Below, piece by piece: positions 183 to 16,106 of a stretch of DNA of 64,000 bases; within the stretch, counting starts at the first letter, position 1; each line of letters starts with the position of its first letter. Position numbers and translations under genes: made by a program. The notes beneath the pieces were generated by a model. The model had not been told where the DNA came from. It searched no databases and saw only the letters and a list, made by a program, of their open reading frames with translations. The DNA comes from Actinomadura sp. NBRC 104412 (GTDB taxonomy: Bacteria > Actinomycetota > Actinomycetes > Streptosporangiales > Streptosporangiaceae): NCBI RefSeq assembly GCF_030269515.1, contig NZ_BSTM01000008.1, forward strand, positions 1 through 64,000, in the 5' to 3' direction.

Positions 183-1265
183 TCAGCTGGTTTCGGCCAG
201 GCTCGTCAGAGGCCCGGGATCGTCGTGAAGCGCGTGAGAACCGAGCCGCTCCTGGGGTATCCGCTTACGCGACTCGAGAAGTTCCCTCACGGCAGGGCGC
301 AATCGCTCGGGGAACCACGCACAGAGAGCGGCGCGTCCGGCACCGGACCCTGAATTGCTGGAGTCGGGCCCGCTCCACGCGTCCTTGCCGGCGAGGAGAA
401 AGGCATAGCAGCCGAGCGCCGGAAGCAACGGCGGCAATCCGAGGATCGCCGACTCGGCGGCCGCCTTCACCGCGGTGTCGATTCCGGCCACGTCCAGATC
501 GCCGAAGTAGTAGAGCCTGGCCGGTGCCGGGACCAGGAGGGGGACGCTCCGAACACTTCGGTTGAATTCGCGGCCGTGGCCCCAGGCGATGTGCAGGTCG
601 GGGCGTTCTCTCTCGGGAAGACGGCGAAGGGCCGTGATGAACGACGTGTAGGTGGCCAGGTTCTCCACCACGAGCAGGGCGGTCCGGCCTCGCCCGGGAA
701 TGTGCTGGGACGCGAAAGGCAGTGGCGGCTGGTAACAGGCAAGAAGTTCGAGACTGAGCGCGCCCGAGGCGAACAGCCGGGTCTTGGCATAACGGTCGAG
801 TGCCTTCTCGTCGCCGAAGAGTTCGAGCGATCGCTCCTGGACCGGGACCTCGACGGGCCGGGGATCGTCTCTGAGCCATGCCGCGATGCGCTCCAGCACC
901 ATGTACTCGTCCTCCCTGGTGGCCAGCCGCCCCGCTTCCTCGAGAGCATGCGGCCACACTCGTGCTCGTGGCTTCGCGCGGGCGGGTGGCGCGGGGGTGT
1001 TCCGCATCACCCAGCGGGGGATCGCCGGGACGGCCCTGCGGTCCCAGCCGGTCCTGGAGCCCTGGGCGGGAAAGGTCACCAGCCCGTCGGCCAGCAACTC
1101 CTCCAGTGCGGCGCGGAAGCGGGCCGAGCCCTCCGGGTCACCGACCAGGCCGGGATCGATCCTGCGGGCGTGGCCGAGCAGAACCTCGATGTCGACGCGC
1201 TTGCCGGTCAGCTCACCGAGCCGCTCCGCGAGGCCGAGCGCGAGCCGGGACGGCGCGTTCGTCAT
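183..1265 (-). CDS. jetD: Wadjet JetD-like Toprim nuclease (DUF3322/DUF2220 type)
   Basis: This 360-residue protein is the predicted nuclease of a Wadjet-like anti-plasmid condensin; in characterised systems JetD cuts circular DNA once the SMC complex has extruded it. The C-terminal half carries a Toprim fold: LLVVENLATY with the metal-binding Glu near residue 201, and YYFGDLDVAGID with the DxD aspartates near 256 and 258, a hallmark of JetD. The N-terminal third is a winged-helix-like accessory region. The ATG start overlaps the stop of the SMC gene (ATGA), so it is the last gene of a four-gene translationally coupled operon. Residues needed for metal binding are present, so it looks functional. 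The exact Wadjet subtype was not determined. Confidence 0.85.
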   Translation of the reverse strand: MTNAPSRLALGLAERLGELTGKRVDIEVLLGHARRIDPGLVGDPEGSARFRAALEELLADGLVTFPAQGSRTGWDRRAVPAIPRWVMRNTPAPPARAKPRARVWPHALEEAGRLATREDEYMVLERIAAWLRDDPRPVEVPVQERSLELFGDEKALDRYAKTRLFASGALSLELLACYQPPLPFASQHIPGRGRTALLVVENLATYTSFITALRRLPERERPDLHIAWGHGREFNRSVRSVPLLVPAPARLYYFGDLDVAGIDTAVKAAAESAILGLPPLLPALGCYAFLLAGKDAWSGPDSSNSGSGAGRAALCAWFPERLRPAVRELLESRKRIPQERLGSHALHDDPGPLTSLAETS

Positions 1266-4200
1266 GTGGGCTCCTCCGCCGGATCGCGCCCGTGGTCGGT
1301 GTGGGCGACCCGGATGCCGGTCACCGTCCCGCCGGGCGGTTCGTCCTGCTCGTCCCCTCGGTTCTCCTCGTGCACGATGAAACGGCGGTTGCGGGTGCGT
1401 CCCGCCCGGTTGTCCAGCCGGATGATGTTGGGAAACTGGATGACCGCGGCCGGGTCCTTGACACCCGTGGTGTAGATGAGCTGGACGCCATGTGCGGCGG
1501 CGACGTCCCGCTGCAGGCGCACCAGCGGGGCGGACGAGGCGCGGCCGATGGGGTTGTCGAGCAGCAGCACGCCGCCCGACCTGCCTCTGCGGCCCGTCCC
1601 TGTGGCACGAAGCGCGGCCAGCGTGCAGTACAGCGCGACGCACACGGTCAGCTTCTCGCCGCCGGACCACTTCGCGAGCCGGCTGATGTCCTCGGTCGTG
1701 GAGACCCGGTCCGTGGTGGGCTTGACGACCTTGACCGTGAATCCGCGCGGCCCGGCGGCCTCATGCAGTGTGGTCTTGAGCAGGGACATGCCGTCCGGGC
1801 GCAGCCCCTTGACGATCAGCTGGTCGATGATCCGGTCGGCATAGGTGCTCAGGTCCCCGTCATGGGGACGGTCGAAGGAGATCCTCAGCACCTTCTTCCC
1901 GGCCCACGCTCCATGTGCGGTGGGCATCAGCGAGGCGCGTTCGGCCTTGCCGAGCATCTCGAAGCTCTGCTTCACCAGGTCGGCCAGGGCCTCGCTGATG
2001 ATCTGCTGGTCCTTGGCGATCGCGTCGAGTTCGTCGGTGAGCGTCTGCGCCCGCAGGCGCAGCCGCGCCGCGAGATCGGAAGCGTGCGGCCCCAGCGCGG
2101 TGACCGGGTCGTTGGCCACCCGGTCCTTCACCGGGCCCGTGACCGCGGGGTGCCTCGTCGCCGTCTGGCGGAGCGCGTCGACCGCCACGGTGAGCCGGCG
2201 TTCGCCCTCTGTACGCCGCTGGACGGCGGCGGCCAGCCGCTCCTTGGCGTCGCGGGCCGCGACCCGTCCCGCCTCTCTGTCACCGGTGAACGCGGGCTCG
2301 GCCACGTCCGGAAGAGTGGGCAGGTCATCCAAAAAGGTGGCGAAGTATTCGGCCCGTTCCCGGTAATGCCGGTCTTCCGTTTCGATCTCACGGATGACGC
2401 CTTCGGCGCGGCTACCGCGTTCCTGTGCCTGCTGGGCGAGAACGTCCTGTTCGGCGGCGAGGGCGGCGGCGTGGTCGGCATCGAGCGGGACGGTGGGCAA
2501 CGCCCTCCGTGGCGGCTGGCGATGCCGGCGCTCGATGTCCTCGAGTTCGCGTTGTCGCACCTTCAGGTCGCTTTTGGCTCTCCCACGGTTTTCCACCGCT
2601 GCGTTCGCGGCGGTGTGTGCGGCCTGGCGTGCCGCCGCGCGCCTTGCCGGTTCCTGGCCTTCGGGGGAGGCCAGGAGCTGCCGCGCCCGTTCGAGGTCAT
2701 CCGGATCCAGACGGGCGAGTTCGCCTGCCGCATCCTCGACGTCCGCCGTCAGGCGCTGTACGCGGTCGGCGAAGACGGACTGGGAGGCGCGGTTCTCGAC
2801 CGCCCGTTCGGCCCGTTCCCAGCCGTCCCGCAGGACGTCCAGCGGAACGGACGGGTCGTCCTCGACCGCCTGATCGAGCGCTGTCACCGAGAGCGCGGCC
2901 GCTTCCGAACGGTGAGCGCGGGCTCTTTCGTCCTCGTCCTCGGCCCGCCGCGCCTGCTCGTGAGCGATCCTGTCGGCACGGCGGGACGCGGCGGCATGTC
3001 GGGTCTGGCGTTCGCTCGCCGCCCTTTTACGGGCTTCCGCGTCCTCCTTGCGAGCCTGCCATTCCCCTCGTTGTGCCAGCACGGGCACCATCTCGTCGAG
3101 CCATGAGAGAGCCTTGTCGATACGGGTGCGTTCGCTGTTCAGAGAGTCGCGTTCGGAACCGTCGAGGTCATCGGCGTCGTCCAGGCCACGCAGTTCGGAC
3201 CGGTTGGCCTCCTGCTCCCGCCTGATCTCTTCAAGGGCCTCGTCCAGCCGGACGATCTCTCGGCTCAGCAGCTCCAGATGCCCGGCCGGACACTCGTCCA
3301 GGAAGTCCTCCAGCTCGCGGCGCAGCTCGTCGTCCGCCGCCCGGCGCGCCTCCAGTTCCTTCTCGCGCAGCAGATGGGACCTGACACGTTCCTTGAGCCG
3401 CCGGACCGCGGCCTCGGCGAGATCTGGATCGACCAGTCCGGGCTCGAGACCCAGCCAGCCGGGCCGGACACCGGCGCCGCCCTCGTCGTGAATGCGGAGC
3501 AGCATCTCGACATCGGAGGTGGTGAAGACGCCCACGAGGGACGTTGTCACCGTCGACTGTGACTCCAGCAGCCGGATAGCGTCCTGCATCGATCCGGTGG
3601 GAACGATGACCCCACAGCCGATCTGAACGATTCCGGGCTCGTCGATGGCCGCCAGAAGCCGGTCGGCCGGGAGTACTCCGCGCAGATATGCCCATCCGGC
3701 CTCCGCCGCGATGCCCGATCCGATGAGCAGCCGCTCGACTCGTTCGGCGTCGAGCGTGGTCGGCAGCACGGCGTCGCGCTCCTGCGCCTCGATGGTCCGC
3801 TCGTCGGCGTGCAGCTCGGCACGCCGTCGTACCCTTTCGTTGTCCGCGGCGATGACGCCGTCTTGGAGGCGGCGCAGAAGGGCGGGGCCTTCACCCCACG
3901 GGTCCAGCGGGTCCTCGGGCGTGGCCTCGGCGAGTTCACGCAGGCGCGGGGACGCCGTCAGCTCTCCCAGCCGTGCGGTCAGCGCGGAGTGACGCGCGGC
4001 GGCGTCATCCCGTTCGCGTGCGGCGGCTCCGCGCTCCTCGTTCAGTTTCTGATTCCGGTCGGCGATCTCCGACCGCCGGTTCCTGCGATGCTCCCACCTG
4101 GCCGCCAGCTCCCGGAGCCGGTGGTCGCACGTGCGCAACTCGACTGTCAGCGCCTCCCGGTGCGCGATGAGATCGGTGTTCTCCGAGGGCAGATGGCCCC

Positions 4201-5701
4201 GCTCGACGCCGGTGCGGAGGCGCTCGGCCATGGTGGACAGCTTCGTGTCCGCCTGGACCGCATCGCTCGTCGCCGTCTCGATCTCGGCGGCCGCCTCGTC
4301 GGCGAGCCGGTCATATCTCTCCACGTCGGCGCTCGCCGTCTCACTGGCGGCACGAGCCTCGGACGCCGCTCCCTCCGCGTGCTGGGCGAGTGTGAGCAGC
4401 CGTTGCCGCAGCCGCACGGCGTGACGGTCACGCTCAGCCCGGAGCGGTGCGATCTCCTTCTCCTCGGTGGCGGCCTCCAGCCGGGCCTGTGCCAGTTCTT
4501 CCCGCAACGAGACGAGCGCGCCCAGTCGCTGGGCGATCTCCCATGCGGTCACCTGTGCGGCCGACGAGAGGACATGCTCTTCGGCCGCCTCCAGGGCGGC
4601 CTCGGCGTCCTGCACACGCTGCCGAGCGGCCGCGCGCCGGTAGAGGTAGGCCAGGTCGTTGGCCGTGGACTTGTCGTTGTTGGCCCTGGTCAGCTCCTGC
4701 GCCACAGCCTCCCGTTGCTCGGCCAGGCTCTCGCGCCTGGCCTTGGCCTCGTCGATGGTCGCGCGGAAGGACGACGCCAGCCGCGCGGAGTCGGCCGTGC
4801 GGGCCTCCACTTCGGCGCCTGCCGCCAGGAGCCCGTCGTGGCAACTGGACACCTCGTCGAGGTCTTCGGCCGCGGCGAGGCAGAAGTCGTGTTCGGCGAG
4901 TTTGCGCGGCTTGGCGCGCAGCAGGGCGGTCACGTTCTCCAGGCGCTGCGCGACGCTGGTGACGGCGTCGGGCGGCGTCGTCAGGTCGAGCAGGAAGTCG
5001 ATGAACTCCCGGGCCGACGCGAACGTGAAGAGGTCCTCCACGCCGCCCTCGACATGGTTCATCTGCTTCTGGATGCGGAAGATCTCGGGATCGAGATGGC
5101 GGTCGGACAGCACGCCGGCCCAGGTGTACTGCTTGTGCGTGATGGCCAGCTTCGCCTGGCGGTCGTACGGTGCCGCCATCGCGCGTAGCGCGTCGAGATA
5201 GCCGGCGAGCCGGTACGGTCGCCCGCTCTCGTCAACGAACGGGAGCGTGTCCAGCCCGATCACCCCGGGCACGGCGTGGCAGGCGTAGAAGTAGCTGGTC
5301 AGCCGCTCCCGGGCGGCGGCCGGCTGTGCGGGCCTGCGCAGGTCGGCCCACTCGTGCACGGCTCCGGTGATCAGCACCTCGTCCGGCTCCCCGAACAGGC
5401 TGCGCGCGGCGCCGCGCGGCTCCCAGACGGCGACGACATGGGACGTGTCGCCCGAATCGATGTAGTCGGTGAGGCTGCGTTTGACGGCGCGTCCCATGAA
5501 GTCGTTCGCCGCCGGCAGCAGCATCGCGTACAGGAGCGACAGGATGCTGGACTTGCCGCCGCCGTTGCGCAGCCAGACGACCGAGTCATGAGCGGTCCGC
5601 GTGTCGTCGACCGGGGCGGTCAGATCGAGGGTGAGGTCGGCGAACCGCGCGGACCGCTCTCCGATCGAGCGGAACCTGAGGGCGCTGAGCTGGAAGGTCA
5701 T
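1262..5701 (-). CDS. jetC: Wadjet JetC-like SMC/MukB-type ATPase, 1479 aa
   Basis: This is the motor ATPase of the predicted condensin-like complex. The N-terminal Walker A is WLRNGGGKSS at residues 43-52. A very long middle section, roughly residues 380-1180, is rich in Glu, Arg, Ala and Leu and reads as two coiled-coil arms around a hinge-like region containing a DPWG element and an ATP-like loop. The C-terminal head has the ABC signature WSGGEK near 1345 and the Walker B GVLLLDNPIG with Asp 1382. The residue after that Asp is Asn, not the usual catalytic Glu of SMC proteins. The open frame extends upstream to 6058, but the ATG at 5701 overlaps the stop of the MukE-like gene (ATGA) and gives the expected N-terminus, so I chose it. 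Confidence 0.85.
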   Translation of the reverse strand: MTFQLSALRFRSIGERSARFADLTLDLTAPVDDTRTAHDSVVWLRNGGGKSSILSLLYAMLLPAANDFMGRAVKRSLTDYIDSGDTSHVVAVWEPRGAARSLFGEPDEVLITGAVHEWADLRRPAQPAAARERLTSYFYACHAVPGVIGLDTLPFVDESGRPYRLAGYLDALRAMAAPYDRQAKLAITHKQYTWAGVLSDRHLDPEIFRIQKQMNHVEGGVEDLFTFASAREFIDFLLDLTTPPDAVTSVAQRLENVTALLRAKPRKLAEHDFCLAAAEDLDEVSSCHDGLLAAGAEVEARTADSARLASSFRATIDEAKARRESLAEQREAVAQELTRANNDKSTANDLAYLYRRAAARQRVQDAEAALEAAEEHVLSSAAQVTAWEIAQRLGALVSLREELAQARLEAATEEKEIAPLRAERDRHAVRLRQRLLTLAQHAEGAASEARAASETASADVERYDRLADEAAAEIETATSDAVQADTKLSTMAERLRTGVERGHLPSENTDLIAHREALTVELRTCDHRLRELAARWEHRRNRRSEIADRNQKLNEERGAAARERDDAAARHSALTARLGELTASPRLRELAEATPEDPLDPWGEGPALLRRLQDGVIAADNERVRRRAELHADERTIEAQERDAVLPTTLDAERVERLLIGSGIAAEAGWAYLRGVLPADRLLAAIDEPGIVQIGCGVIVPTGSMQDAIRLLESQSTVTTSLVGVFTTSDVEMLLRIHDEGGAGVRPGWLGLEPGLVDPDLAEAAVRRLKERVRSHLLREKELEARRAADDELRRELEDFLDECPAGHLELLSREIVRLDEALEEIRREQEANRSELRGLDDADDLDGSERDSLNSERTRIDKALSWLDEMVPVLAQRGEWQARKEDAEARKRAASERQTRHAAASRRADRIAHEQARRAEDEDERARAHRSEAAALSVTALDQAVEDDPSVPLDVLRDGWERAERAVENRASQSVFADRVQRLTADVEDAAGELARLDPDDLERARQLLASPEGQEPARRAAARQAAHTAANAAVENRGRAKSDLKVRQRELEDIERRHRQPPRRALPTVPLDADHAAALAAEQDVLAQQAQERGSRAEGVIREIETEDRHYRERAEYFATFLDDLPTLPDVAEPAFTGDREAGRVAARDAKERLAAAVQRRTEGERRLTVAVDALRQTATRHPAVTGPVKDRVANDPVTALGPHASDLAARLRLRAQTLTDELDAIAKDQQIISEALADLVKQSFEMLGKAERASLMPTAHGAWAGKKVLRISFDRPHDGDLSTYADRIIDQLIVKGLRPDGMSLLKTTLHEAAGPRGFTVKVVKPTTDRVSTTEDISRLAKWSGGEKLTVCVALYCTLAALRATGTGRRGRSGGVLLLDNPIGRASSAPLVRLQRDVAAAHGVQLIYTTGVKDPAAVIQFPNIIRLDNRAGRTRNRRFIVHEENRGDEQDEPPGGTVTGIRVAHTDHGRDPAEEPT

Positions 5702-6459
5702 GGCGTCGGGTCCCCCTGGTGCGATGTGTCGTGGTGCTGGTCCCGGCGCCGCCGGACCTCGGCGATGAACGAGTAGGCGCGTTCGAGCGCAACCTCGCGG
5801 GCGTGGATGCGGAACCTCTCGGTCAGCGTCCAGCCGCCCTCCGAGGACGTGTCGGGACGGGCCATGGCCTGGCCTTGCAACCAGGTCAGGACGTTGCGGA
5901 CCCAGTAGCGGCTGCAGGTTTTGCGCAGCTTGCCGCTGCCGCGTCCCCTGTCGCCGTACTCGATCGGCTTCATGTTCAGGTAGATCCGCCATGCCTCGTC
6001 GAGGCCGTGTTCCGGGATCTCCTCCCCTGCCGCGTCGTGGGAGCGCAGCCGCTCGCACAGGTCGCGGAGCCAGTCGTCGAAGTCGCGTTCGGAGACGTGC
6101 CTGACCCTGTCGTCCTCCAGTTCGTCCGCGCTGGGGTAGGCGAAGGCCACCAGGCCGGTGAGGACGAGCCCGGCGATCAGTCTGTACCGCTCGTCCTGCG
6201 CGTTGGCCATGTCGGAGATCCGGAAGGCCAGCGGGGACTCCGGTTCCACGCCGAGGATGAGCCCGTAGTCGCCGTCCGAGAGCACCCGGACGCTCAGGCC
6301 GTGCAGGAAGGCGTCGGTGGCCGAACGGAGCTCGCGCTCCCCGCGGTACCGGGAGAGGACGCGCTGGTACTCGGGATTGCGGCCGGGGCGCTGCGCGGGC
6401 CGCATGGCGAACGAGATCAGTGTCCCGATGTCGGTGAAGTCGCTCTGGACGAGACTCAT
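5698..6459 (-). CDS. jetB: Wadjet JetB-like (MukE-type) subunit
   Basis: A 253-residue soluble protein sits between the kleisin and SMC genes, the position of JetB/MukE in Wadjet and MksBEF operons. It has no catalytic motif that I can see. The composition and size (winged-helix-rich, about 25-28 kDa) fit the KITE-type subunits that bind the kleisin. The C-terminal part is basic and ends in a His-rich tail (RRRDQHHDTSHQ). Both ends overlap the neighbouring genes by four bases (ATGA), implying fixed stoichiometry by translational coupling. The assignment depends mostly on gene order and size, since sequence conservation in this family is low. Confidence 0.75.
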   Translation of the reverse strand: MSLVQSDFTDIGTLISFAMRPAQRPGRNPEYQRVLSRYRGERELRSATDAFLHGLSVRVLSDGDYGLILGVEPESPLAFRISDMANAQDERYRLIAGLVLTGLVAFAYPSADELEDDRVRHVSERDFDDWLRDLCERLRSHDAAGEEIPEHGLDEAWRIYLNMKPIEYGDRGRGSGKLRKTCSRYWVRNVLTWLQGQAMARPDTSSEGGWTLTERFRIHAREVALERAYSFIAEVRRRRDQHHDTSHQGDPTP

Positions 6460-8081
6460 CGGTGTCCTCCGGGGAAGTCGTGGGAGGCGGCCGGGGCCGG
6501 TGCGGCGTCGGCCAGTGCGTCCTGCTCGGGTGCGACGATCACGTCGTCGCCGACCCAGCCGGGAAGGCTGAGGCGAGTGCCGTCGGTGTCGACCGCGGCA
6601 CGCGGGCCGAGGACACGGTCGGCCAGGTCGTCGGTCATGGGGATGTCCTCGTCGTAGGTCTCGGGGGAGTAGGCCCAGAGCACGGCGAGGCTGAGGATCT
6701 CTGCGCCGACCCGTCTGATCGAGGCCGAGGGCTCATCCGCGTCGTGGTGGCACGCATCGATGAGAGTGGACAGACGGGCGGGCAGACCCACCGTCCGCAC
6801 CGCGCGGATCGCGACATCGATGGCCTCGGGCGCGAGGGAGGGCGGTGATGGGGCCGCGAGCTCGGTCTCCTCTGGTTCCTCGCCGGTCTTCCGGCGCTGC
6901 TCCGGACGGGCCCAGAGGTCGTTGATCAGGCGGTAGAGGCGCGGGAGCCGGGGGACGTGCGGGCCGCACATGTCGGTCAGGAGCCGCCGTGTCATGGCGG
7001 ACGCGTCCTCGTACGCCAGCTCGATGCCCGGCAGCAGGACGTCCCGGTGCGGGTCGGGGAGGTCGATCGCGGCCGGGGGACGGAAGGACTGCCGTTCCTG
7101 CTCGTCGAGGAAGACCCCGCGGGCGCCGATGACCCTCCGGTGCAGATCCTCGTGCCGGCGGCGGCATTCACGCAGCAGCGCGTCGATCCGCGTCGCGGCG
7201 GCCAGAACGGCGGAGTCGTCGCTCCCGAAGGCGGTGTGGATGCGTTCCAGGAGCTTGCGTTCCGCCCTCAACCTCTCCTGGATATGCGTGCGTGCGGACT
7301 CCAGCCGCTCCGGCACGGCCGCGATCCAGTCGCCTTCGACCGCCCGCAGGTCGCGCCGGGTCTGCTTGATCACCTGGTCGAGGTCGTCGGCGAGCCGCAC
7401 CGACAGCAGCCGGGCGCGCTCGGCCGACTTGCGCGCGGAGTCGAAGGCGTTGCGCGCCAGCTGGCGTTCCAGCATCAGCTCGGTCGCGACCTGCTCGTCC
7501 TCCACGTCGAAGTCGAGACCGCCGATCAGCGCGTTGATCGCGTCCGGGGTGGCCCGCAGCACGTTCTCGTCCCTGACCGCGTCGTCGCGCTCGACCAGCA
7601 GCGAGAACGGGACCTCGCGGCGCCGGTGACGACCGTCCTCAGCGGTGTAGTCACTGGTCACATAACGGAACGGGCCATCGCGGCCGTTGCGGTTGAGCAG
7701 CGAGTCGATCACGAACGAGGCCACCTGCCGGTGCTCCTCGGCAGGGCGCTCGGCGGCCGCGCGGTAGGCGAGCTCGCGAAGCGCCACGGCGACGTCGTCC
7801 CGTGTCGCCTCGAGGTCGAGACCTTGCCTGGCCACCACCATGTCGATGGCGGCCAGCGCCAGCGTGACGATGTCGTAGGTGTCGGCCGGCCAGTCTCTGC
7901 GCCGTGCGGACTGGGCCATCTCGATGATCGGAGAAAAGCGGAGAAAAGCGGCAACCCGGGCAGGAAAGGACGATTCAGAGGCGCTCAACCCCGCGGGATC
8001 GGCATCGACCGGCATTCCGTCGCCGTCCGGCTCGTTGCGATCTTCGTCAGGGAGATCCGGCCCCTCGATGAGAGATGTCAT
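6456..8081 (-). CDS. jetA: Wadjet JetA-like (MukF/kleisin-type) subunit
   Basis: The first gene of the coupled operon encodes 541 residues. It has an acidic N-terminus and a segment reading RATPDAINALIGGLDFDVED, typical of the condensin-like kleisins found with MukE and MukB homologues in actinobacteria. A helical, Arg-rich stretch around residues 215-310 is likely to contact the SMC neck. The ATG at 8081 is preceded by an AAGGAC ribosome site. The gene overlaps the MukE-like gene by four bases. In Wadjet the kleisin bridges two SMC dimers and recruits the JetD nuclease. Family membership is inferred from pattern and operon position rather than from catalytic residues. Confidence 0.75.
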   Translation of the reverse strand: MTSLIEGPDLPDEDRNEPDGDGMPVDADPAGLSASESSFPARVAAFLRFSPIIEMAQSARRRDWPADTYDIVTLALAAIDMVVARQGLDLEATRDDVAVALRELAYRAAAERPAEEHRQVASFVIDSLLNRNGRDGPFRYVTSDYTAEDGRHRRREVPFSLLVERDDAVRDENVLRATPDAINALIGGLDFDVEDEQVATELMLERQLARNAFDSARKSAERARLLSVRLADDLDQVIKQTRRDLRAVEGDWIAAVPERLESARTHIQERLRAERKLLERIHTAFGSDDSAVLAAATRIDALLRECRRRHEDLHRRVIGARGVFLDEQERQSFRPPAAIDLPDPHRDVLLPGIELAYEDASAMTRRLLTDMCGPHVPRLPRLYRLINDLWARPEQRRKTGEEPEETELAAPSPPSLAPEAIDVAIRAVRTVGLPARLSTLIDACHHDADEPSASIRRVGAEILSLAVLWAYSPETYDEDIPMTDDLADRVLGPRAAVDTDGTRLSLPGWVGDDVIVAPEQDALADAAPAPAASHDFPGGHR

Positions 8082-8187: not shown

Positions 8188-9648
8188 TCAGAAGATCGTC
8201 GTCGCCCGGCGTCCCCTGGTCAGGGCCACGTAGAGGCGCCGGTGGCTCTCGTGTTCCGAACTCAGCCCGGCCTCCAGCAGGGCGGCCTCGTTGTCCGTGA
8301 GCCGTACACCGACGTCATTCCACTCGCGGCCCTTGGCCTGATGGATCGTGAGTCCGGGGATGAATCCTTGCCTGTCCGCCAGCAGGCGGGCATGCATCCC
8401 TTCCAATTTCCGAATATGTGTTCGATGTTTCCGCTTGAACGGCCGCTTCGTCGCTACGCCCACCGCTCTGATCAGCCGCTGGTAACAGGCGTCGATGTCG
8501 CCGGTTCCGCGCATCGATTCCAGGACCTCGCTGAGCGGACCGGCGAGACGGTCCAGCGTGTCCTCGTCGAGCTCGAGAGTGCCCAGCGCGTCCGAGAGGA
8601 AGACGGCGTGCTCTCCCAGCGCCATGGTGGTCAGGCGGTCGAGCAACAGGAGTATCGCCGCCGCGTTCGTGGTGTCCGGCATGCCGAAGGAGAGGGGCAG
8701 AACGGTGTGGGGGCATTCCCACAGCTGGTCCCAGGTTCCGGCGAGGACGATGTCCGGCCGTGTGAACGCCTGAGCGGAGAGGCGGACCGTGCGCCCCTGG
8801 CGCAGTTCGGTGGACAGCATTCTGGATTCCACCGTGCTGAATCTGAACGACCGGGTCAGGGGCAGTTTCGCGAACCCCTGCCCGGCGACCAGTCCTGGTA
8901 CCAGATTCGGGTCGGCGCCGCGGAAGCCGTACAGGGCCTGCCAGGGGTCACCGATGATGGTGACACGGATGTCCTGGAGGCAGGCGAGTTCCACCAGCCG
9001 AAGATCGAGCCGGTTCGCGTCGAAGATCTCATCGACGACGAGCGCGCCGATGGACTCACCGAGCAGCCGCGCGACCGCGTTCCGCGCCTCGTCGCGGTCG
9101 AGTGCCGCTTCGAGCACGGCGCGGACGTCGTCGTGGGTGCACTCGCCCTCGTTCACCCGTGCGACGAAAGCGTCGTGCCGGACATGGCTGTCCTGCCTCG
9201 CCGACCGCATCCTCACGACGACGTCGCGGCCGTCGAGGGCAAGGAACGGGCGTCGTTCACCCCATCTGTGCTCGGCTTTGCCCTTCCAGGTGTCGTGCAC
9301 CGTGATCGCGGTCAAACCGCCGGGCCACTGGACCAGGCCCAGCTCCAGGAGATGGCCCAGAACCCGTTCCAGCAGGGTGTCGAAGGTCATCACGCGATGC
9401 GGCCGGGTCAGAGCGCGTCCGCCCCATTTGAGCCGGATGCGCTGCCGGAGTTCGTTCGCCGCCGACCTGGTGAAACTCAATCCGATGACCGTGCCGTCCG
9501 CCGTCCCGGTGAACCGGTGCAGGCCGAAGCGCATCGCGGCGACCGTGGTCTTGCCCGAGCCGGGCGCCGCCTCGATATAGGCACGCCGAGCCGGGGAGCA
9601 CACCGCCGTGATCTGCTCCTCCGTCAGGTCGCCGCTATTCCCGCTCAT
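8188..9648 (-). CDS. UvrD/Rep-like superfamily 1 helicase, Gabija GajB-like
   Basis: A 486-residue SF1 helicase with every core motif present: Walker A AAPGSGKTT at residues 27-35, motif II VVDEIFD, motif III IIGDPWQALYGFRGA, motif V TIHQAKGREW and motif VI RRLYVALTRGRR. At under 500 residues it is much shorter than UvrD or PcrA and matches GajB of the Gabija defence system. The ATG at 9648 is chosen because GGAG lies eight bases upstream (9657-9660); a GTG at 9657 is possible. It overlaps by 14 bases the preceding Toprim fragment, the gene order of gajA-gajB. A 106-bp gap separates it from the Wadjet-like operon on the same strand, so co-transcription is plausible. Confidence 0.8.
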   Translation of the reverse strand: MSGNSGDLTEEQITAVCSPARRAYIEAAPGSGKTTVAAMRFGLHRFTGTADGTVIGLSFTRSAANELRQRIRLKWGGRALTRPHRVMTFDTLLERVLGHLLELGLVQWPGGLTAITVHDTWKGKAEHRWGERRPFLALDGRDVVVRMRSARQDSHVRHDAFVARVNEGECTHDDVRAVLEAALDRDEARNAVARLLGESIGALVVDEIFDANRLDLRLVELACLQDIRVTIIGDPWQALYGFRGADPNLVPGLVAGQGFAKLPLTRSFRFSTVESRMLSTELRQGRTVRLSAQAFTRPDIVLAGTWDQLWECPHTVLPLSFGMPDTTNAAAILLLLDRLTTMALGEHAVFLSDALGTLELDEDTLDRLAGPLSEVLESMRGTGDIDACYQRLIRAVGVATKRPFKRKHRTHIRKLEGMHARLLADRQGFIPGLTIHQAKGREWNDVGVRLTDNEAALLEAGLSSEHESHRRLYVALTRGRRATTIF

Positions 9649-10201
9649 CGACCTCACTCCAGGACGCGTCCGCGGAGGTGGCGTCCAGGTCGGCCTCGTC
9701 CAGCAGGACGTAGGGCTCTTCGGAGCCTGGAGAGCCGGTGTAGAGGAACTCGAACAGGTCGCTCATGTGGTCGGGTACATGGACGGGCTCCCCCTCGTCG
9801 AGCCGGCGGCGCAGCTCGTCCGCGAGCTGGAGAGCGAACCGGCCCTTGAGCCTGGCCGCCGGTCCGGCGCTCGCGGGCGCCGAATCGGAGGTCTTGACCG
9901 CACTGTGGAAGTGCGCATGGACGGACGAAGGAGTGATCGGCTCGGGCAGGGGCACCCCCAGCCTCGCGAGAACCTCGCCGATGGCGGCCTCGTTCTTCAG
10001 CGTGATCGCTGGTTCCAGCGTGGGATGGCTCGCGAAGAAGCCGACCACGTCCGGATCATGTTCCTCCAGCCAGCCGGGCTCGCGTGGCGTCTCGTCCCAT
10101 GGCTGGTCACTGTCGCGCAGGACTGCCACCTTGGCGGCGCACTCATGTCCCCGCGTGGCGAGCAGGCGCATGGTCCAGGGCCCGACCTTCGTCCCGATCA
10201 C
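9635..10201 (-). pseudogene. C-terminal remnant of an OLD-family (GajA-like) Toprim nuclease
   Basis: The 188-residue frame starting at a GTG matches only the end of an OLD/GajA-type ATP-dependent nuclease. It has a Toprim strand VVIGTKVG, then VAVLRDSD with the DxD metal ligands, then TLEPAITLKNEAAIGEVLARL and a final helix-rich tail ending PDHMSDLFEFLYTG. The ABC-type ATPase domain and the first Toprim Glu motif are absent. The frame stays open upstream through about 80 bases (10202-10280) reading EHRAWAGADRARSAFIEALT, then runs into the end of the DUF1330 gene, whose stop is at 10278-10280. No ribosome site precedes the GTG. I read this as a gene cut by a deletion; a short expressed Toprim protein is the alternative. 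Confidence 0.7.
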
Positions 10202-10277
10202 GACGATGGTGAGCGCTTCAATGAACGCCGAACGCGCCCGATCGGCGCCCGCCCACGCGCGGTGTTCGCGCGTTTGT

Positions 10278-10625
10278 TCAGGGCTGTTGCGCTGCGCGCA
10301 TGGAGGCGGCGGTTTTGGCGGGGTCGTAGTTCGGGGGGACGCCCTGGAGCAGGACGGCGGTTCCTTCGATGTGGTCGGTTCGCATGGGGAGGATCTCCTG
10401 GTAGGCGTCCGAGGCGTACCAGGCGCGGGCGGTGTCCATGTCCGGGAACTCGATCAGGACGTAAGTGCCCTCCGTTCGGCCTTCGATCTGTTCCGGTGCC
10501 GTGCCGTGGACGAGGAAGCGGCCACCATACGGGTCGAGGGTGTCCTGGATTCGCTCCATGTAGGTAAAGACGTTCTCGTGCAGCGGTGGCTGGGGGCGCA
10601 GGTTGGCGAGGGCATAGGCGGTCAT
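10278..10625 (-). CDS. DUF1330 family protein
   Basis: A 115-residue dimeric alpha-beta barrel type protein of the DUF1330 family. The segment TYVLIEFPDMDTARAWYAS followed by YQEI and the RTDH element are typical of the family, whose members are small ferredoxin-like fold proteins without an agreed enzymatic role. The ATG at 10625 follows a good GGAGG ribosome site. The gene ends at the point where the truncated OLD nuclease frame begins, so the deletion that removed the nuclease N-terminus probably joined this gene to the remnant. It is divergent from the alpha/beta hydrolase gene across a 186-bp promoter region. Confidence 0.85.
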   Translation of the reverse strand: MTAYALANLRPQPPLHENVFTYMERIQDTLDPYGGRFLVHGTAPEQIEGRTEGTYVLIEFPDMDTARAWYASDAYQEILPMRTDHIEGTAVLLQGVPPNYDPAKTAASMRAAQQP

Positions 10626-10811
10626 CGTTGCCTCCGTTGGCTAGCACATGGTGGTCTCGGCTCTTTCAGCCTGGCGGGTTGAAGGAACGCTCACCATTAC
10701 CTCAGGCGTAGCCCCTCCGGCGGTACGCTGCCGGACGCCGATGCGTGCGGCTCGGCTGTTGCCGGTGCCGTCATCTTCGCGCCGACGCTATAAGGGCTAT
10801 GAGGAGTGACA

Positions 10812-11612
10812 GTGGCGGTTGAGCGGCAGGTTGAGATTCGTGGGCTGCGGCTGGCCTACGTTGATTTCGGTGGGTCTGGTAGGCCGCTGCTTGCCTTGCA
10901 TGGCCATTTCGGCCGGGCCCGGATGTTCGCCTCGCTCGCCGGCATGCTCGCGTCCGGCCACCGGGTCGTCTCCCTGGAACTGCGCGGTCACGGCCATAGT
11001 TCACGGGGCGGGAGCTATAAGCCGGATGAATATCGCGAGGATGTCGCCGAGTTCGTCCGGGAGATGGGCCTGGCTCCGGTCGATCTCCTAGGGCACTCGA
11101 TGGGCGGTGTTGTCGCGTTCCGTGTGGCGGCCCGCTATCCGGAACTGGTACGCGCACTGGTCGTGGAGGAGGGCGGCGCCTGCAACCGTCGGCCTGAGGT
11201 GCCCAACCCGGTTTTGGACGTGCGCTCCTGGCCCCGCCGTGCTCCTACCCTCTCCGACCTGCGCCGACAGATCGAGGCGCGCGGCATACCGGACGCGAGC
11301 TATTTCATGGAGAGCGCCGCCGAATTCGACGATGGCTGGGGCTTTCTGTTCGATCTCGACGACATGATGGAATCCCAGGAGGCGCTTGTCGGCGATTGGT
11401 GGCCGGACTGGCTCGCCTCGACGTGTCCCGCGTTGCTCATCCATGGAAGGGACAGTTTCGTCCTCCCCACGCCGATGGCCAGGGAAATGGCCGCCCGTCG
11501 TCCCGGCACCGGGCTTCAGGAGTTTCCCGGCTGTGGACACTGGGTTCACGACGATGCCCCGGAACGCTTTGCCGAAGTCGTCGGAACTTGGCTCGGTGGC
11601 AATTCGGGCTAG
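10812..11612 (+). CDS. alpha/beta hydrolase
   Basis: A 266-residue alpha/beta-fold hydrolase. The oxyanion region is LLALHGHFGRA, the nucleophile elbow is LLGHSMGGVVAF (Ser of GxSxG), the acid is in LLIHGRDSF and the catalytic His is in GCGHWVHDD. The substrate cannot be told from sequence; esterase, lactonase or C-C hydrolase are all possible. An in-frame GTG at 10806 overlaps the GAGGAG ribosome site (10801-10806), so the GTG at 10812 is preferred. Its stop codon overlaps the stop of the convergent inositol monophosphatase gene by three bases, leaving no room for a terminator between them. Confidence 0.88.
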   Translation: MAVERQVEIRGLRLAYVDFGGSGRPLLALHGHFGRARMFASLAGMLASGHRVVSLELRGHGHSSRGGSYKPDEYREDVAEFVREMGLAPVDLLGHSMGGVVAFRVAARYPELVRALVVEEGGACNRRPEVPNPVLDVRSWPRRAPTLSDLRRQIEARGIPDASYFMESAAEFDDGWGFLFDLDDMMESQEALVGDWWPDWLASTCPALLIHGRDSFVLPTPMAREMAARRPGTGLQEFPGCGHWVHDDAPERFAEVVGTWLGGNSG

Positions 11613-12406
11613 GTTTCGGCGTCGTGGAGCAGGGCGGCGATGTCGTGGGTGAGTGCGGGCGCGGTGGCGATGGTGGCGGAGGAGTCGAAGGTGTGGTCCG
11701 TGCCGTCCTGGTCGATCACGTTGGCTCCGGCCTCGCGGGCGATGATGATACCGGCCGCCATGTCCCAGGGTTTGTTGGACAGCGTGATGCCGGCGTCCAG
11801 CTTGCCTTCGGCGACCCACGCTAGATCGATGGCCACCGTTCCCAGCATCCGCACTCGCTGGACGCTGGCGGCGAGGTGTTCGGTGAGGGCGATGCGTCGG
11901 CGGTTCTTGGCCTCGGCGCCCTCGCCTACGGCGTAGTCCCCTATGGCGACGATCGCGTCCTTCAGGTTGGTGGTCATGCTGGCACGGATGCGGCGGTCTC
12001 CGAGGTGGGCGCCGGTGTGCTGGGCTGCGTGGTAGCGCGCGCCCAGGAAGGGCAGATCGATGACGCCCACGATGGGGCGGCCTTTGGCGATCAAGCCGAT
12101 CGAGATGCCGCAAAGCGGGATGTCGCGCACGAAGTTGGCGGTGCCGTCCACCGGGTCGATGGCCCACAGGAGATCGCCGGTGGTGTCCCCGCTGATCCCT
12201 TCTTCCTCGCCTAGTACGGCGATGTCGGGCGTTCGCTCTTCGAGGTAGTCCCGGACGGCGCGTTCCACCGTGTAGTCGACTTCGCTGGCCATGTCGCGGT
12301 CACCCTTGGCGGTGAGCAGGCCGGGCACGCGCGTGCGCACCAGCTCGCTTGCCATCTCCGCGGCCTTGAGGGCGACGGGGAGCAGAGCCGCGGGTGCGTC
12401 GTTCAT
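11609..12406 (-). CDS. inositol monophosphatase family phosphatase
   Basis: A 265-residue Mg-dependent phosphatase of the IMPase/FBPase superfamily. It carries the metal-binding Glu motif LGEEEG, the core motif WAIDPVDGTANF and the C-terminal WDMAAGIIIAREAGA. These are the three standard motifs, so it should be active on myo-inositol-1-phosphate or a related sugar or nucleotide phosphate such as histidinol phosphate or PAP. The open frame extends to 12478, but the ATG at 12406 has a GAGG ribosome site in the right place and gives a family-length protein. It is monocistronic as far as the window shows. Confidence 0.88.
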   Translation of the reverse strand: MNDAPAALLPVALKAAEMASELVRTRVPGLLTAKGDRDMASEVDYTVERAVRDYLEERTPDIAVLGEEEGISGDTTGDLLWAIDPVDGTANFVRDIPLCGISIGLIAKGRPIVGVIDLPFLGARYHAAQHTGAHLGDRRIRASMTTNLKDAIVAIGDYAVGEGAEAKNRRRIALTEHLAASVQRVRMLGTVAIDLAWVAEGKLDAGITLSNKPWDMAAGIIIAREAGANVIDQDGTDHTFDSSATIATAPALTHDIAALLHDAET

Positions 12407-12733
12407 GTGATCCGACCTCGTTCCCATAGACGCTTGCGTTCCCGCGATCGTGCTTTCGGACGCGAAGGAGCACGTCAAGAAGTGTGCCCAGACGGGCCGA
12501 GCGGCTCTGGAAACGGTCGGGTCGGTTGGGGTGGTACGGATTGGCCGTAATTCGGGGTTGTGAGGTGATCTTGGGGGAGGTCATGCTCTGACGGATGATC
12601 TGCTTGGAAGTGGGATAAAGGTCGATTCAATGGCGAAAGATGACGAAAGTTGCTGATCAGGTTGAGGCTTCATTAAAACGTGCGCGGGGTATGAGTGATG
12701 TAGGACACATCGCAACGCCCCACGGAGTGCGAA
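12407..12733. other. divergent intergenic region with promoters of the phosphatase and esterase genes
   Basis: 327 bases between two divergent starts. AT content rises toward the esterase side (12600-12690), as expected for a promoter, and an ACGGAG ribosome site precedes the esterase ATG. I see no convincing reading frame, repeat or RNA gene. Confidence 0.4.
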
Positions 12734-13606: not shown

Positions 13607-15898
13607 TCAGGGGGCCGGGTTGCTGGAGCGCCACTCCTGGGCTTCCGGGGTCTCGGTGTATTCGAGCAGGTGGTTGCCGGCTATGCGTTCCAGGACGGCG
13701 CGGACCTCGGACGGGGTGGCGTAGAAGAACTCGCGGCGCTGGTTGACCCGGTTGACGCGCCGGTCCGCGAATTCCTGGTGGAGGCGGTTCTCCAGGCCGA
13801 CGGCGTCCTCGCTGAAGATGAGCGCGTGCACGTCGAAGTGGAAGGGGACCGAGGCGTCGCCGAGCTCGCGGACCCGTTCGGTGGGATCGAGACGGCGGGT
13901 CATGCCGATCTTGACCATGCGCTCGCCGAACGCGCCGATGTTGGAGATCACGTAGACATGGCCGGTCCGGGTGTTGGCGGCGCGTCCCTCGACATCGCTG
14001 ATGGCGTTGGCCACGTCGGCGAGTTTGGCGCGCAGCTCGGCGGCTCCCGCGGTGTCGCCGTTGGCCTCCAGGCGCGCCAGGGCGGTCTGCACCTGTGACT
14101 GTGCCTTGAGGAGGCGTGCCTTTTCGCGTTCGAACTCCTTGCGGGCCTTCTCCTCTTCGCGTTGCCGTTCGCGTTCCGCCCGGATCCGCTCCTTCTCCTC
14201 CTCGGTCTTGGCGAGGTGGTCGGCGGTGAGCCGCAGTTCCTGGATCCGGAGCCTGCGGTAGTCGGGGCTGACCCGGATGTTCATCGTCTTGCCGAGCCGT
14301 TCGATGGTCTGGGCCGTCTTGTCCAGCCGTTCGATCGAAGAGCGCAGCTTGTACGGGCGCATCGTCCGGATGAGATTGTCTGCCTCGGCGTTGTAGGCGC
14401 GCAACATGAGCTTGGAGAAGTCGCGCACCATTTTCCGGCCCTGCGCGAGCGAGCCGTTCACGGACCAGTCGGTGGCGCCGACGACGGCGCGGTCACCGCG
14501 CGCCATCGTCTTGATCCTGTCCTTGATCTTCGCGAGTTCGGCCTTGTAGGCGACGGCGTCGGCGAGGGGGTGCTGGTATTCGTAAACGCCGGCTTCCTGG
14601 AGGAGCGCGACGTCCTGGGTTTCGACGATGCTTTGGCGGATCCGATCGAGCTCTTCCCGCTTGGTCCTGATCTCGTCGGCCAGGGCGGCGGCCTGCCGAC
14701 GGTGCCGCTCGTTCTCCTCGGCGAGCCGTAGCGGCTCCAGCGCGCCCACCCGCTGCAATTCCCGGAGGAGGCGGGCGTTCTCGGCCTCCAGTTCCTCGAT
14801 GCGCTGCTTCTTGCCGCCGAAGGCGGGACGGCGTTCGGGTCGTGCGGGAGGTGAGGTCGCCGGGGCGGCGGCGAATTGCACGGGACGTCCGCGGGTGACA
14901 AGGCGTTCGGCGAGTTGGAGAACGGTGGCCGCGTCGGTGTCGTTGAGATCGCCGAAGTCGACGTCGGCGGCGTTGTGCAGATGGGCGACCAGTCTGGGCG
15001 TGTGGGTGAATCCGGAGCGCAGCTCGACCGCGGAGATCGTGCCGAGCTCGGCCGTCAGCCTGAACCCGGAGGCGTTCAGATCATGGATGGAGAAGGCCGC
15101 GATCCGGCGATCGGTGATGACGAGATGGTTCAGCGCCGGGCGCATCTTCGCGGTTCTCGTGAGCGCGAGAAGTGTTTCGTCCTGGTGGAGGTGCCGAGCG
15201 AGCCTGATGAGGAGGTCGCGGACTTTGTCGGGCTTCAGTTTCGCGCCGACGTACTGCGGCCAGGCAACGGGCGGCTCGGGCGGCTCGGGCGGTGAGGCAG
15301 GCGCGGGAGGCGGTGGTGCCGCAGGCGTCCAGAACTGCCAGCCCGGCGGAGCGGGCGGCCATGAGGGGGCGGGCTGCCAACCGGGCGGTGGCGTCCAGCC
15401 GATGGGCGGGGCGGGCCATCCCGGGGGAGAGTTGTAGAGCCAGGCCGAGGTGTTGCTGGGTCTGGGCGGCGGTGCGGCGGCACTTGGCACGGGAACGGGT
15501 GGCGTGGGCGTGGCTATCTGGGTTCGTATGAGTTGCAGGATCTGCGGAGCGTCCGTGTCGTGCACGTCGCCGAAGTCGGATTCCTCGCCGGAGTCGTGCT
15601 TCACGACCAGGAACCAGCGCTGCTGGTACGACTTGCGGGTCTCGACATCGGTGATGGCGCTGAGCGGGAGTTCCTGACGTGGGCCCTCGCGGCTGAGGTC
15701 GGGCGCGGAGAAGCCGATTACTCGGGTGTCGGTGACGGCGACGTGGGTGAGCTTGGGCAGCGCCTTGGTGGTCGTCACCAGGGCCAGAAGGCGCTCCTCG
15801 CCCTTCACGAAGAAACCGAGCACCTTCAGGAGATGGGCGGTCTCACCCGGGTCCACATCTGCGCCGATGTAAGGGGTGGTGTGCGGCTGAACCGTCAT
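13607..15898 (-). CDS. two PH-like repeats, DUF4041 coiled coil and C-terminal GIY-YIG (T5orf172/MUG113) nuclease domain
   Basis: A 763-residue multidomain protein. Residues about 20-135 and 240-345 are two copies of one domain: both have LLALxxTxK, a central (V/I)TD(T/R)R(V/I) strand and a DFGD(V/L)(H/N)DTDA motif. A Pro/Trp-rich linker with PPGW repeats joins them. A long coiled-coil follows, resembling DUF4041, with many charged residues near 560-610. The C-terminus is a T5orf172/MUG113-like GIY-YIG domain: GHVYVISN, VKIGMTRR, the Arg of ERVRELGD and the Glu of LENRLHQEF. Related DUF4041 plus GIY-YIG proteins occur in phages and defence loci, so a nucleic-acid role is likely but unproven. 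The ATG at 15898 has a GGAG site five bases upstream. Confidence 0.8.
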   Translation of the reverse strand: MTVQPHTTPYIGADVDPGETAHLLKVLGFFVKGEERLLALVTTTKALPKLTHVAVTDTRVIGFSAPDLSREGPRQELPLSAITDVETRKSYQQRWFLVVKHDSGEESDFGDVHDTDAPQILQLIRTQIATPTPPVPVPSAAAPPPRPSNTSAWLYNSPPGWPAPPIGWTPPPGWQPAPSWPPAPPGWQFWTPAAPPPPAPASPPEPPEPPVAWPQYVGAKLKPDKVRDLLIRLARHLHQDETLLALTRTAKMRPALNHLVITDRRIAAFSIHDLNASGFRLTAELGTISAVELRSGFTHTPRLVAHLHNAADVDFGDLNDTDAATVLQLAERLVTRGRPVQFAAAPATSPPARPERRPAFGGKKQRIEELEAENARLLRELQRVGALEPLRLAEENERHRRQAAALADEIRTKREELDRIRQSIVETQDVALLQEAGVYEYQHPLADAVAYKAELAKIKDRIKTMARGDRAVVGATDWSVNGSLAQGRKMVRDFSKLMLRAYNAEADNLIRTMRPYKLRSSIERLDKTAQTIERLGKTMNIRVSPDYRRLRIQELRLTADHLAKTEEEKERIRAERERQREEEKARKEFEREKARLLKAQSQVQTALARLEANGDTAGAAELRAKLADVANAISDVEGRAANTRTGHVYVISNIGAFGERMVKIGMTRRLDPTERVRELGDASVPFHFDVHALIFSEDAVGLENRLHQEFADRRVNRVNQRREFFYATPSEVRAVLERIAGNHLLEYTETPEAQEWRSSNPAP

Positions 15899-16106
15899 CG
15901 CTTCTCCGCTCCTCGTCACGCGTGGCCTTCGCGGAGACCGGGCCGGGCGTGCTGGGAGCGTTCACCGGCGAGGATGTGTTCGTTGGCGTGGCGGTCCCCG
16001 TTTTCTTAGCGGGACGCCCCGTCGGAGGGCTGCGTTTACCGGTGGCCGGATGTGGAGAAGGCGCCGGATCGAGTGGCGCAAAGCCCGATCGAGTGGTGCG
16101 AAGGGG

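What the first reader, a model, noticed from the sequence alone, without database searches (positions are those of the whole stretch)
9635..10280. GajA-like nuclease truncated exactly at the end of a DUF1330 gene
The frame keeps OLD/GajA-type Toprim C-terminal features up to about codon 10280 and then merges into the end of the DUF1330 gene in another frame. The ATPase domain and the first Toprim Glu are gone. The helicase gene next to it is intact and overlaps it as gajB overlaps gajA. This looks like a deletion that removed most of gajA and left an orphan GajB-like helicase.
Basis: partly seen in the sequence, partly recalled or inferred. Interest (0 to 1): 0.75.

Follow-up and report, generated by a model that had tools for sequence, protein, structure and literature searches.

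The report
Broken Gabija defence operon, helicase intact
A two-gene anti-phage defence system (Gabija) has lost the first two thirds of its nuclease gene, where a relocated unrelated gene now sits, leaving an inactive-looking stub beside an intact helicase gene; this is ordinary decay of a defence system.

Summary
The frame at 9635-10261 (-) is the C-terminal third of a GajA nuclease: it is 75% identical to residues 465-671 of an intact 671-aa GajA in another species of the same genus (G014). There, gajA overlaps a gajB that is 73% identical to the helicase at 8188-9657. DNA similarity (76.5% over 2.07 kb) stops at 10262, about 20 bp from the end of the DUF1330 gene. The ATPase domain and the Toprim Glu are missing here and nowhere else in the genome. 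The helicase is intact.

Correction: DUF1330 is not the old neighbour of gajA. In 14 relatives examined it lies in another locus, usually before an fmdB-like gene. That locus survives on contig C23 of this genome without DUF1330. So the junction joins a relocated gene to gajA and is not a simple local deletion.

The remnant shows no decay at 44 conserved positions, so the break is probably recent. Two other GajA loci in the same order are also broken, one of them again with gajB intact. A complete-looking type III Wadjet operon follows downstream. Ordinary defence-system decay; low novelty.

The parts
9635..10261 (-). gajA remnant: codons equivalent to residues 465-671 of the intact G014 GajA (end of Toprim domain and C-terminus), with stop codon
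   Evidence: 75% identity to an intact 671-aa GajA; dN/dS about 0.25
10262..10284 (.). junction: about 22 nt matching neither gajA nor the DUF1330 3' region; it supplies the last codon and stop of DUF1330
   Evidence: blastn limits and direct comparison with relatives
10278..10625 (-). DUF1330 gene, relocated here from a conserved locus whose remains lie on contig C23
   Evidence: Pfam DUF1330 8e-25; 75-83% DNA identity to orthologues at another locus in 14 relatives; C23 locus lacks it
8188..9657 (-). gajB: UvrD-like SF1 helicase, intact, ATG probably at 9648, overlapping the gajA stop
   Evidence: PADLOC GajB 2e-36; 73% identity to G014 GajB; conserved helicase stretches present
6456..8081 (-). 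jetA3 of a type III Wadjet operon, 106 bp after gajB
   Evidence: PADLOC JetA3 1e-116
5698..6459 (-). probable jetB (253 aa)
   Evidence: position between jetA and jetC; no PADLOC hit; lies in a stretch 70% identical to G027 over 7.8 kb
1262..5716 (-). jetC3
   Evidence: PADLOC JetC3 3e-286
183..1265 (-). jetD3
   Evidence: PADLOC JetD3 1e-75

Best explanation
This is a Gabija operon broken at its 5' end. A DNA rearrangement placed a relocated DUF1330 gene next to codon ~465 of gajA and removed everything before it: promoter, start, ATPase/dimerisation domain and the Toprim Glu (shown by comparison). The remaining ~208 codons cannot make a Gabija nuclease, because they lack the first catalytic acidic residue and the ATPase domain through which GajA tetramerises and binds GajB (inferred from published structures and mutants). 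gajB is intact and could still be transcribed from DUF1330 or upstream, but as an orphan it should not give Gabija defence (inferred). The break is probably recent, since the stub shows no sign of decay.
For: Intact gajA-gajB in the same genus, 75% and 73% identical to stub and helicase, with DNA similarity ending at 10262. Intact pairs also in G440, G284, G338, G246 and G486. No N-terminal part anywhere in the genome: the only other notable hit is a 30%-identical OLD-like ATPase on C36. DUF1330 orthologues sit at another locus in 14 relatives, and that locus on C23 of this genome has lost DUF1330. 0 of 44 invariant positions changed in the stub; dN/dS 0.25 for the stub and 0.22 for gajB; polarised changes 7 (window) against 11 (G014). 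Literature: the GajA C-terminal domain alone and E379A are inactive, and T7 resistance needs the whole cassette (PMC8136825); GajA-GajB contacts (K94, R97) and the GajA oligomer interfaces are in the ATPase region, and interface mutants lose defence (PMC10781630).
Against: Absence of decay in the stub would also fit continued selection on it. A draft-assembly error at the junction cannot be excluded without reads. A second OLD-like ATPase in the genome (C36) might conceivably pair with the helicase, though it is only 30% identical and has its own helicase neighbour.
Confidence: 0.92

Rival explanations
1. The short gene is functional: a C-terminal Toprim protein, or GajB alone or with it, kept for another role such as DNA repair or helping the adjacent Wadjet operon.
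For: No relaxation visible in the stub; gajB intact; a second family member, G676, also lost the gajA N-terminus while gajB stays intact; Wadjet lies 106 bp downstream on the same strand.
Against: No genome shares the same short form; the G676 copy breaks at a different point, against a kinase gene, and is frameshifted at its end. The Toprim Glu is missing; no convincing ribosome-binding site precedes the first in-frame GTG (10201). Wadjet in G027 occurs without gajB. The published C-terminal GajA fragment is inactive (PMC8136825).
Confidence: 0.06
2. The junction is an assembly artefact joining unrelated sequence to an intact gajA.
For: Draft genome of 131 contigs; both neighbours of the junction come from different ancestral loci.
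Against: The junction lies about 10 kb inside a 285-kb contig; the missing gajA part is found on no other contig, and DUF1330 occurs only here, so nothing is left over to explain.
Confidence: 0.04
3. The frame is a distinct short Toprim gene, unrelated to gajA.
For: Weak profile scores for the fragment alone.
Against: 75% identity to the C-terminus of a full-length GajA, followed by the same overlapping gajB.
Confidence: 0.01

Closest known systems
Gabija (GajA-GajB) anti-phage system
   Same: Same gene order with overlapping genes; helicase matches PADLOC GajB; stub aligns to the GajA C-terminus
   Different: GajA lacks its ATPase/dimerisation domain and the Toprim Glu, so the nuclease is not complete
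Intact GajAB locus of the same genus (G014:C59)
   Same: 75% (GajA C-terminus) and 73% (GajB) protein identity; 76.5% DNA identity over 2.07 kb
   Different: G014 has all 671 GajA residues and lies beside a pPIWI_RE locus, not beside Wadjet or DUF1330
Broken GajAB locus of G676 (same family, other genus)
   Same: gajA N-terminus lost, gajB intact
   Different: Breaks near residue 380 against an antisense kinase gene, and has a frameshift near its end

Membership tests
Gabija | GajA with N-terminal ABC ATPase/dimerisation domain | tested here: not met
   Absent upstream of 10262 and elsewhere in the genome
Gabija | Toprim catalytic site (Glu plus DxD) | tested here: not met
   Glu (E452 of G014) lost; DxD (RDSD) kept
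Gabija | Adjacent UvrD-like GajB helicase | tested here: met
   PADLOC GajB 2e-36; 73% identity to the GajB of an intact pair
Gabija | gajA end overlapping gajB start | tested here: met
   14-bp overlap, against 8 bp in G014
Gabija | Anti-phage activity | not testable with these tools
   Needs expression and phage challenge
Wadjet type III (neighbour) | jetA, jetB, jetC and jetD together | tested here: inconclusive
   jetA3, jetC3 and jetD3 match PADLOC; the gene in the jetB position has no profile hit but lies in a stretch 70% identical to the G027 operon

The most novel reading that the evidence does not exclude
GajB is kept by selection after loss of the GajA N-terminus, in at least two lineages, because the helicase (with or without the Toprim stub) does something useful on its own or with another system.
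Probability: 0.06. Interest if true: 0.5.

Novelty: new member of a known kind. Interest (0 to 1): 0.2.

Why it matters
It is a clear example of how a Gabija operon dies: three of the six related gajA places found in this order are broken, two of them with gajB still intact. Annotation by gajB alone would wrongly count these as Gabija. If the orphan helicase turned out to be kept by selection, it would open the question of what GajB does without GajA.

Tried and rejected
Profile search of the stub alone (Pfam nothing, PADLOC GajA 0.01, NCBIfam nothing relevant) could not settle it; comparison with relatives did. The genome-contig scan gave one weak haloarchaeal hit at 34%, which dropped out of the later blastp. 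A residual 5' piece of gajA beyond DUF1330 or elsewhere was sought and not found. The idea that DUF1330 is gajA's ancestral neighbour was rejected. A relaxed-selection test showed none in the window stub; in G676, 13 of 73 invariant positions changed, but four of these lie at the junction or behind the frameshift and intact relatives reach 8 of 52, so that is not clear evidence of relaxation either. The promoter/terminator scan was uninformative.

Full report
What is there. On the minus strand the order is DUF1330 (10625-10278), an open frame ending at 9635, a UvrD-like helicase (9657-8188) and jetA-(jetB)-jetC-jetD of a type III Wadjet operon (8081-183). The window starts at the end of its contig.

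The frame is the end of gajA. Profile libraries barely see it. A search of relatives found an intact copy in the same genus: G014 carries a 671-aa GajA (Walker A GGNNAGKTT, OLD-like Toprim; PADLOC GajA 2e-50) overlapping a 486-aa GajB. The window frame matches residues 464-671 at 75%, the helicase matches GajB at 73%, and DNA similarity (76.5% over 2,072 bp) runs from 8198 to 10262 and stops. Five further loci of the same class (G440, G284, G338, G246, G486) and two Streptomyces plasmids carry near-full-length gajA; gajB follows in the five loci. The lost part holds the ABC ATPase, the dimerisation insert and the Toprim Glu (E452 in G014); the kept part has the DxD motif and HPTLEP. The missing N-terminus is nowhere in the genome.

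The junction. In 14 relatives the DUF1330 gene lies at another locus, in nearly all immediately followed by a convergent fmdB-like zinc-ribbon gene (an insertion-sequence-like stretch follows it in G046). The flanks of that locus are present in this genome on contig C23, without DUF1330 and with the fmdB-like gene inverted among repeated sequences next to a short transposase-like remnant. DUF1330 occurs only in the window. So a relocated DUF1330 gene abuts gajA at about codon 465, with about 22 nt of unassigned sequence between, which supplies the last codon and stop of DUF1330 (inference). The next genes, an alpha/beta hydrolase and an inositol monophosphatase, are likewise found singly in other contexts in relatives, so this part of the window is a mosaic.

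State of the pieces. The stub has no internal stop, dN/dS about 0.25 against 0.22 for gajB, and no change at 44 positions invariant among six intact GajAs. This means a recent break or continued constraint; the data cannot separate the two. gajB keeps the conserved helicase stretches and changes at 2 of 105 invariant positions.

Other broken copies. In the same order, six genomes of 347 hold a match: three intact (G014, G284, G486) and three broken (this one; G676, N-terminus lost near residue 380 against an antisense kinase gene, gajB intact; G656, a 77-codon fragment without gajB). Deletions entering from the 5' side will hit gajA first, so two cases with gajB intact do not by themselves indicate selection.

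Mechanism. Published work shows that the C-terminal GajA domain alone is inactive, that the Toprim Glu is essential and that resistance to T7 needs the whole cassette (PMC8136825). GajA oligomerises and binds GajB through its ATPase region, and interface mutants lose defence (PMC10781630). GajB showed no helicase or DNA-binding activity in one study (PMC10681800). The stub therefore lacks a catalytic residue, the regulator and the GajB-binding surface. The locus should not give Gabija defence. This last step is inferred, not tested.

Verdict. It is a degraded member of a known kind.

Noticed in passing
window 183-8081 (-): Type III Wadjet operon directly after gajB; jetA3, jetC3 and jetD3 match PADLOC, the gene in the jetB position (5698-6459) matches nothing. 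Only one other genome of 65 in the genus (G027) has it.
   Followed up: partly
window 13607-15919 (-): 770-aa protein with DUF4041 and a T5orf172 (GIY-YIG-type) domain, matching PADLOC PD-Lambda-1 (2e-114); with Wadjet and the Gabija remnant it makes a defence island.
   Followed up: partly
L054 (G000:C23:3000-17500), near C23:9800-11000: Conserved locus that has lost DUF1330; the fmdB-like gene is inverted between inverted repeated sequences, next to a short transposase-like remnant (ANGKVERLNHTLPDG).
   Followed up: partly
window 10806-12478: Alpha/beta hydrolase and inositol monophosphatase genes are each found singly in other contexts in relatives, so several neighbouring single genes appear relocated into this region.
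   Followed up: partly
L088 4749-7241 (G676:C1): Second, independent gajA 5' truncation with intact gajB, fused to an antisense Ser/Thr kinase gene, with a frameshift near the gajA end.
   Followed up: yes
L091 3579-7558 (G000:C36): OLD-like ATPase (608 aa) directly after a 702-aa UvrD-like helicase; order reversed relative to Gabija.
   Followed up: no
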